This document shows, piece after piece, positions 7,626 through 22,168 of a stretch of 32,090 nucleotides of DNA. The notes beneath the pieces are model-generated. The model saw only the letters and a program-made list of their open reading frames with translations. It did no database searches and was not told the DNA's origin. Position 1 is the stretch's first letter, and every line of letters begins with the position of its first letter. Position numbers and translations under genes: made by a program. Origin of the DNA: Anaerolineales bacterium (lineage in GTDB: Bacteria > Chloroflexota > Anaerolineae > CG2-30-64-16); the NCBI GenBank assembly GCA_017882045.1, contig JADGQF010000016.1:1-32090 (forward strand), written 5' to 3'.

Positions 7626-9986
7626 TCACTCAGCCGGTTCAGCCGCCAATACCCCACCCACCTCGCTGACAGCATTCGCCACCCAGCGTTCCCTTGGCCA
7701 GTCCGGCGCGCCTGCCCAGCGCAGGCCGGGGTTGCGCGGCGGCAACAGGACCTTCCGGGCGGGACTATCGGCGATTGCCACCGCTATTCCGAGGGCAACC
7801 TCTCCATGCAGGCCGCCCGGGGTCAGCATGTCACTCGGGCCAACGATAATGCGCGCTCGCGCCAGCCCCTCGTCGGGCCCGCGCGCCGGGCCGCGCTCGC
7901 CCAGGCTGCGTTGCATCTCGACCTGGGCGGCAGCGCTCAAGGCTACCGGCCAGAGCACCAGGTCAGGGAACGCCTGGTGCAGGGCCGTCAGGAGGGCTGC
8001 GCCCAGGCTGCCGTCGTCCCCGTCGACCACCGCCACGATCGAGAATCTCCTGCGCCGGAGCGGCGCCGCCACCCTCTCACCTTCTGGCTCCGCCGGCCCG
8101 CGAGAGACAGCCGCCGGAAGCGGCATGACGGAGGGCAACGGACGAGCGACGAGCGGCTCTCCCGGCTGCGGTCCCGCGCCGGCCGCGACTGCCCCAGCAT
8201 CCAGACTTCCCTGGGTGGTTGCCTCCCCGAGCCCGGCCGGAGATCTATCCGCCGCAGTCGAGCTCGTCGCGACGTCGTGCTGTACCGTGACTGCCGCGCC
8301 TGGCCGGCTTTCACCGCCTGCCGCCAGGCCGGCCACCGGCAGGCCCACGGCTGCGCCGACACCCGGCAGCGGCTGGCCCTCAGAAACATTGCCGGCCAGC
8401 GTGTCCTCGCCGAGATGATCGGTTGCCGGCCGGAAACCCAGAACCCGCTCATCCTCGCTGCGCAACCGTCCGTCGGCACGCAGGACCACAGCGTGCGTGA
8501 GCCAGAAGATGAGGGCGATCACGATACCCCCGCCCAGTTGTACGAGCGAAATGGCAAGGCTGGTGGCAGCGGTGGGACCAAAAAGCCAGCCCGGGGCGCG
8601 TACGAGCACAAAACCGAGCGTGATCACCGAAACGACGGCCGCAGCCAGGACCACGCCATACAGGTAGACCTTGCGCAGCACCGAAGAGCGCTCGGCATAG
8701 CCGGCCGGGCCGGGCAGGCGCGCCAGCTCCTGAGACGGGCGCCAATGGCCCCACCACGCCGGAGCGCCGGCCAAAAATAACGCCGCCGACAGGCTGAAAT
8801 AGTCGCGCGCCTGTGGGTTTGCAAGCATGGTAGCCGGCCAGAGGCCGACTGCCAGGAGGATAGTCAGGCCGAGCAGCGCCTGAAGACCGTACCAGAAAGC
8901 CGCCAGGCCGAGCGCGGCGAGCACATAATAGTAGAGGCGGCGCAGAATGGCTGCGTCCTGGCTCTCGTCAGTCCAATCGATATCGCCACGTGCGACATTG
9001 CTAAAGGCCAGCCAGAGCAGAAGTCCTTCCGGCAGATAGGCCACGGCCGGTACCAGGGTCTCTTCCCAGAACACCTGGGCGTTGGCGACCGGCTGCCCGA
9101 GGGCAACCAGCAACCCGTGCCACACGAGGTAACCGAACGTGACGAGCGTCAGGGCCGTCCCGGCCATCATACCGGCGTAGAGCAGCAGCTTGCGGCTGAT
9201 CGCGTTGACCTCGTCCACGACGTCCGCGGTGGACGAGGTCAACGCGATCAGGCGGTTGGCGCGCAGCCAAAGGATAATGGCCAGGGGCAGGGCAACGATG
9301 GTCATGGCCAGCGAGGCGGCGGCCAGGGCGCGCCAGTTGGCGACCTCGCCGGCCCCTGTGCCGAAGAAGTAAACCCGGGCCGCGAGGCTCAGGAAGGTGC
9401 GTAAGAACTCACCGGCGCCCAGCGTGGCAACCAGCGTGGCCAGGCCCGTTCCTAGATAATAATACGCCCGCCGCCAGCCGGGACCCGCGCCAGGTTCGGC
9501 GCCCATATCCCCGTCCCATGCGGTCAGGCGGCGGAGAAAGAACCAAAAAGCCAGGCTGATCGAGGCTCCGACGGCGCCGCCGGCCACCTGGGGCATCCAC
9601 ACGGCCGTCTGCGCAGTCAGGATCCACAGGAACCCATAGTACAGGGCCAATCCCACTTCCACAGCCAGGCAGGCCAGGGCGCCGAACTGTCCCATCCATA
9701 GATAGCCCTTGCGGGCCGGCGAGCCCCGCTCGGCGCCACCCGCGATCGTCAGATGGCGCGCCTCACGATTGGCCAGATACCAATGCAGGCCCCAGACGGC
9801 CACGGCGACCAGCGCGGCACCGAGCCAGAGCAGGACACTGCTTCCCATCAGCCCGGTCACCGAGAAATCGCTCCCCGCCAGGGCCAGTTCGATAAGACCG
9901 ACGCCGGCATTGATGAGGCTCAGCAACCAGACCAGCAGGCTGATGAGGGCCACGGTATAAAGATACACGCGCTGCACGCTGCGCAT
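7626..9986 (-). CDS. Multi-pass membrane protein with repeated DUF5671-like units, a disordered linker and a DUF3842-like soluble C-terminal domain
   Basis: Recurring '(R/K)+xYxY' helix starts: RSVQRVYLYTVAL, RRAYYYLGTGL, SRKLLLYAGMM, LRRLYYYVLAAL, LRKVYLYGVVL. Gly/Ala/Pro-rich linker, then FSIVAVVDGDDGSLGAALL...ARIIVGPSDMLTPGGLHGEVALGIAVAIADSPARKVLLPPRN. Confidence 0.75.
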   Translation of the reverse strand: MRSVQRVYLYTVALISLLVWLLSLINAGVGLIELALAGSDFSVTGLMGSSVLLWLGAALVAVAVWGLHWYLANREARHLTIAGGAERGSPARKGYLWMGQFGALACLAVEVGLALYYGFLWILTAQTAVWMPQVAGGAVGASISLAFWFFLRRLTAWDGDMGAEPGAGPGWRRAYYYLGTGLATLVATLGAGEFLRTFLSLAARVYFFGTGAGEVANWRALAAASLAMTIVALPLAIILWLRANRLIALTSSTADVVDEVNAISRKLLLYAGMMAGTALTLVTFGYLVWHGLLVALGQPVANAQVFWEETLVPAVAYLPEGLLLWLAFSNVARGDIDWTDESQDAAILRRLYYYVLAALGLAAFWYGLQALLGLTILLAVGLWPATMLANPQARDYFSLSAALFLAGAPAWWGHWRPSQELARLPGPAGYAERSSVLRKVYLYGVVLAAAVVSVITLGFVLVRAPGWLFGPTAATSLAISLVQLGGGIVIALIFWLTHAVVLRADGRLRSEDERVLGFRPATDHLGEDTLAGNVSEGQPLPGVGAAVGLPVAGLAAGGESRPGAAVTVQHDVATSSTAADRSPAGLGEATTQGSLDAGAVAAGAGPQPGEPLVARPLPSVMPLPAAVSRGPAEPEGERVAAPLRRRRFSIVAVVDGDDGSLGAALLTALHQAFPDLVLWPVALSAAAQVEMQRSLGERGPARGPDEGLARARIIVGPSDMLTPGGLHGEVALGIAVAIADSPARKVLLPPRNPGLRWAGAPDWPRERWVANAVSEVGGVLAAEPAE
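9196..9251. repeat. Perfect 23-bp inverted repeat with 10-bp spacer inside the DUF5671 gene
   Basis: Left arm 9196-9218 CTGATCGCGTTGACCTCGTCCAC; spacer 9219-9228 GACGTCCGCG; right arm 9229-9251 GTGGACGAGGTCAACGCGATCAG. Confidence 0.95.
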
Positions 9987-10036
9987 CGTTGCTCTCCCCC
10001 CAACATGACCCATCAGGCACAAATAAAGCCTGTGAC

Positions 10037-22127: not shown

Positions 22128-22168
22128 GGAGACTGGGAGAGCGCGCTTCGCGCATTCTCCCAGTCTCC
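22128..22168. repeat. Long perfect hairpin between the AOR and ThiS-like genes
   Basis: GGAGACTGGGAGA (22128-22140) / TCTCCCAGTCTCC (22156-22168), with inner stem GCGCG-ctt-CGCGC. Confidence 0.9.

What the first reader, a model, noticed from the sequence alone, without database searches (positions are those of the whole stretch)
9196..9251. Perfect 23-bp inverted repeat with 10-bp spacer inside a coding sequence
CTGATCGCGTTGACCTCGTCCAC-gacgtccgcg-GTGGACGAGGTCAACGCGATCAG is an uninterrupted palindromic pair within the DUF5671 gene. It lies in the linker between two TM repeat units (minus-strand protein ...NRLIALTSSTADVVDEVNAISRKLLLY...). All codon positions match between the arms, so protein constraint alone does not explain it. 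Possible explanations are a template-switch mutation, a functional mRNA hairpin or protein-binding palindrome in the gene, or an assembly/amplification artefact.
Basis: partly seen in the sequence, partly recalled or inferred. Interest (0 to 1): 0.72.

Follow-up and report, generated by a model that had tools for sequence, protein, structure and literature searches.

The report
One-off template-switch hairpin in a gene
A copying error during DNA replication pasted a backwards copy of about 23 bases just upstream of the original inside a membrane-protein gene of a Chloroflexota bacterium, adding five amino acids to a loop; it is a clean example of a well-known kind of mutation, not a new genetic device.

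Summary
The palindrome is real: arms 9196-9218 and 9229-9251 are 23/23 complementary with a 10-nt spacer. About 1.7e-7 such hairpins are expected in the window by chance, and it is the longest perfect hairpin in 0.81 Mb of the same genome. It lies in a minus-strand gene for a multi-TM DUF5671 protein with a C-terminal DUF3842 domain. Same-family orthologues (38-42% identical) show its origin: the nearest reads NRL-TWDAPEV-ELNALSR; the window reads NRL-IALTSST-ADVVD-EVNAISR, five residues (15 nt) longer, only here. The downstream arm (VDEVNAIS) is inherited: 18/23 bases match the nearest orthologue at the homologous position. The upstream arm (LIALTSST) resembles nothing at its site above chance and is the downstream arm's reverse complement. 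No homologue has more than a 9-bp perfect stem there. Neither arm recurs in the genome; there is no terminator or credible RNA-family match; the new residues fall in a predicted loop between helices. Best explanation: one in-frame, lineage-specific replication template-switch mutation, probably recent because all seven wobble-wobble pairs are intact. Conserved function and mobile palindromic repeat are contradicted; an artefact is unlikely but untested without reads. Ordinary in kind.

The parts
7626..10022 (-). Host gene: multi-helix membrane protein with DUF5671 repeats and a C-terminal DUF3842 domain; first base of the reading frame uncertain (10022 is the longest frame)
9229..9251 (-). Arm that is 5' in the mRNA (CTGATCGCGTTGACCTCGTCCAC, encodes LIALTSST): the new, copied arm
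   Evidence: No better than shuffled sequence against the orthologues' upstream region; covers the lineage-specific extra residues
9219..9228 (-). 10-nt spacer (loop)
9196..9218 (-). Arm that is 3' in the mRNA (GTGGACGAGGTCAACGCGATCAG, encodes VDEVNAIS): the inherited source arm
   Evidence: 18/23 bases identical to the nearest orthologue at the homologous position, 13-16 of 23 in the other four family members

Best explanation
A DNA-replication template-switch mutation. While the polymerase copied this site, the growing strand switched for about 20 bases onto a reverse-complement template, either its own freshly made strand folded back over a loop of about 10 nt or the opposite parental strand. 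It copied the inherited segment encoding VDEVNAIS backwards and then returned to the normal template near the conserved Leu codon (CTG). This replaced part of an ancestral linker resembling TWDAPEV, left the gene a net 15 nt longer in frame without a stop codon, and produced a perfect 23-bp hairpin. The extra residues sit in a loop between predicted helices, so the protein probably tolerates them. Shown here: the palindrome, the lineage-specific 15-nt length difference, which arm is inherited, absence from orthologues, single copy. Inferred: the replication mechanism, the strand used as template, the exact switch points, neutrality and recency.
For: Perfect 23-bp arms far beyond chance. Orthologues lack the 5 extra residues and any comparable stem: 4-9 bp perfect at most in ten homologues. 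The downstream arm matches orthologous DNA at the homologous position while the upstream arm is at chance, so one arm is a copy of the other. Arms occur once each in the genome and nowhere in 9 family genomes except one hit with 3 mismatches at an unlinked place. The insertion falls in a low-confidence loop between helices (residues 244-247, block pLDDT 66). The mechanism is established in E. coli (PMC7202029), in yeast coding genes (PMC8604942) and for creating RNA stems (PMC8794818).
Against: No genome of the same genus was available, so the pre-event sequence is known only from orthologues at about 40% protein identity. The exact switch points cannot be placed, and the 15 nt may have accrued in more than one step (one residue of the five, the D in ADVVDE, could be a separate change). 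No reads could be examined.
Confidence: 0.9

Rival explanations
1. A functional mRNA hairpin or protein-binding palindrome maintained by selection in the gene (RNA processing site, translational pause, regulator site).
For: Strong fold, z = -7.9; all seven wobble-wobble pairs intact (sequence).
Against: Absent from every homologue examined; no terminator-like or promoter-like site; the only Rfam matches are miRNA-precursor models far below their gathering scores, as any perfect hairpin would give; recency explains the perfect pairing.
Confidence: 0.04
2. An assembly or amplification artefact (inverted chimera).
For: The genome is a fragmented draft (462 contigs, 6% contamination) and no reads were seen.
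Against: The 56-base structure fits inside a single short read, lies mid-contig, preserves the reading frame (net +15 nt) and introduces no stop.
Confidence: 0.05
3. A mobile or repeated palindromic element inserted in frame, like Rickettsia palindromic elements, REPs or MITEs.
For: It is a palindrome that adds residues in frame to a protein.
Against: Single copy in the genome at up to 3 mismatches; one arm is inherited gene sequence homologous to orthologues; the net gain is only 15 nt, less than the palindrome.
Confidence: 0.01

Closest known systems
Template-switch mutations that create perfect RNA stems (Monttinen and Loytynoja 2022, PMC8794818)
   Same: A reverse-complement copy placed beside its source makes a perfect stem in one event, in one lineage
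   Different: Their cases are microRNA and rRNA genes; this one is inside a bacterial protein-coding gene, and ancestral states are less well resolved
Quasipalindrome-associated template-switch mutations in E. coli (Klaric et al. 2020, PMC7202029)
   Same: Bacterial replication, nascent strand used as template, perfect palindrome as the product
   Different: Those perfect a pre-existing imperfect repeat; no strong pre-existing repeat is seen in orthologues here
Template switching in yeast coding genes (Abraham and Hazkani-Covo 2021, PMC8604942)
   Same: Several neighbouring amino acids of a protein changed by template switching between inverted-repeat arms
   Different: Theirs homogenise arms or invert spacers; here the gene is also longer by 15 nt
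Coding palindromes of Nematomorpha mitochondria (Mikhailov et al. 2019, PMC6649704)
   Same: Perfect inverted repeats inside protein-coding genes
   Different: Those are numerous, up to 284 bp, and both arms encode conserved protein; here there is one and only one arm is conserved

Membership tests
Template-switch mutation | One arm is the inherited sequence and the other is its reverse-complement copy | tested here: met
Template-switch mutation | Relatives lack the new arm | tested here: met
Template-switch mutation | Four switch points explain the whole difference from the ancestral sequence in one event | tested here: inconclusive
   Relatives are too distant to reconstruct the ancestral linker base by base
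Quasipalindrome correction | A pre-existing imperfect inverted repeat at the site | tested here: inconclusive
   Family orthologues have at most 10-15 bp stems with up to 2 mismatches in the 120 nt around the site; ancestor unknown
REP / MITE / Rickettsia-type palindromic element | Several copies in the genome | tested here: not met
Intrinsic terminator | GC-rich stem followed by a run of T | tested here: not met
Conserved functional RNA hairpin | Stem conserved or covarying in relatives | tested here: not met

The most novel reading that the evidence does not exclude
The hairpin, though born by template switching, has been co-opted in this lineage as an intragenic RNA or DNA signal, for example to tune expression of the membrane protein.
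Probability: 0.03. Interest if true: 0.4.

Novelty: new member of a known kind. Interest (0 to 1): 0.17.

Why it matters
It is a clear example, in a draft Chloroflexota genome, of a replication error writing several new neighbouring amino acids into a protein. Such events can be read from a coding palindrome plus distant orthologues, and they can mislead alignment-based inference of positive selection. It does not reveal a new system.

Tried and rejected
Rfam gave only miRNA-precursor models far below their gathering scores (30.8 against 79, 28.1 against 268, 18.3 against 70), rejected as generic matches to a perfect hairpin. Promoter and terminator scans gave nothing. Spontaneous inversion of the 10-nt spacer was considered: the frame stays open in either orientation, but nothing supports it. 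Of the other long hairpins that fall in open frames in the sample, those in frames with a Pfam match lie near the frame's start, before the recognised domain, and the rest are in frames without a Pfam match, so no second clear coding case was found. A first alignment call failed because two loci were given on the wrong strand (redone).

Full report
Observation. The inverted repeat is exactly as described: arms 9196-9218 and 9229-9251, 23/23 complementary, spacer 10 nt. A base-composition model (G+C 64.5%, pair probability 0.271) expects about 1.7e-7 hairpins this good in the window and 4e-6 in 0.81 Mb. The minus-strand RNA folds with z = -7.9. In a sample of 813,512 bases of the same genome (the window plus 80 other contigs) it is the longest perfect hairpin with loop 3-60; hairpins of 15 bp or more are in excess overall (19 against 0.1 expected), so such structures are made or kept more often than composition predicts.

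Setting. It lies in an intact minus-strand open frame (7626-10022) with DUF5671 (E 7e-33, three stretches) and a C-terminal DUF3842 (E 2e-14).

Orthologues. Searches of relatives, of the family and of the genome collection gave same-family orthologues at 38-42% protein identity and more distant homologues. At the site four orthologues read NRL-TWDAPEV-ELNALSR, NAL-AYQAPEA-ELHTLGR, DRW-AALAPAV-ELNTASR and NRL-SWDAPEL-ELNALGR. The window reads NRL-IALTSST-ADVVD-EVNAIS-R, five residues longer than all of these.

Direction of the event. The arm that is downstream in the mRNA is homologous to the orthologues' ELNALS segment: 18/23 identical bases with the nearest and 13-16 of 23 with the other four family members, each rare in shuffles (0.003 or less). 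The upstream arm, wherever placed in the preceding 75 nt of each homologue, does no better than shuffled versions. So the downstream arm is inherited and the upstream arm is its reverse-complement copy. The longest perfect stem in the corresponding 120 nt is 4-9 bp in ten homologues. Third codon positions of the two arms pair with each other and all seven such pairs are intact; as wobble sites drift quickly, the event is probably recent (inference).

Mechanism. This is the footprint of a replication template switch, by fold-back onto the nascent strand or by a switch to the opposite strand, as described for RNA stems (PMC8794818), quasipalindromes in E. coli (PMC7202029) and yeast coding genes (PMC8604942). 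The return to the normal template may have used short identity around the conserved Leu codon (inference). In a structure model (mean pLDDT 79, five sequences) the new residues fall between a long helix ending at residue 243 and a short one starting at 248, in a block of pLDDT 66 (numbering from window 9971), which would explain tolerance.

Alternatives. A conserved function is contradicted by absence in all homologues and by the lack of terminator, promoter or credible RNA-family signals. A repeated palindromic element is contradicted by single copy. An artefact is unlikely because the structure fits in one read, keeps the frame and contains no stop, but only reads can settle it.

Verdict. 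Real, well explained and ordinary in kind: a lineage-specific mutation with no evidence of function.

Noticed in passing
window 7626-9971 (-): The protein joins repeated DUF5671 membrane units to a C-terminal DUF3842 domain; both are domains of unknown function.
   Followed up: no
L054:179-226: A 22-bp perfect, AT-rich hairpin with a 4-nt loop lies upstream of the GntR domain in an open frame, probably before the true start of that regulator gene; possible operator or leader hairpin.
   Followed up: partly
L029:10372-10417 and L029:15154-15198: Perfect hairpins of 21 bp (loop 4) and 18 bp (loop 9) on one contig that is unusually rich in long hairpins; the first is outside any long open frame.
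   Followed up: no
window 22128-22168: A 19-bp inverted repeat, 89% complementary, with 3 nt between the arms; not examined.
   Followed up: no
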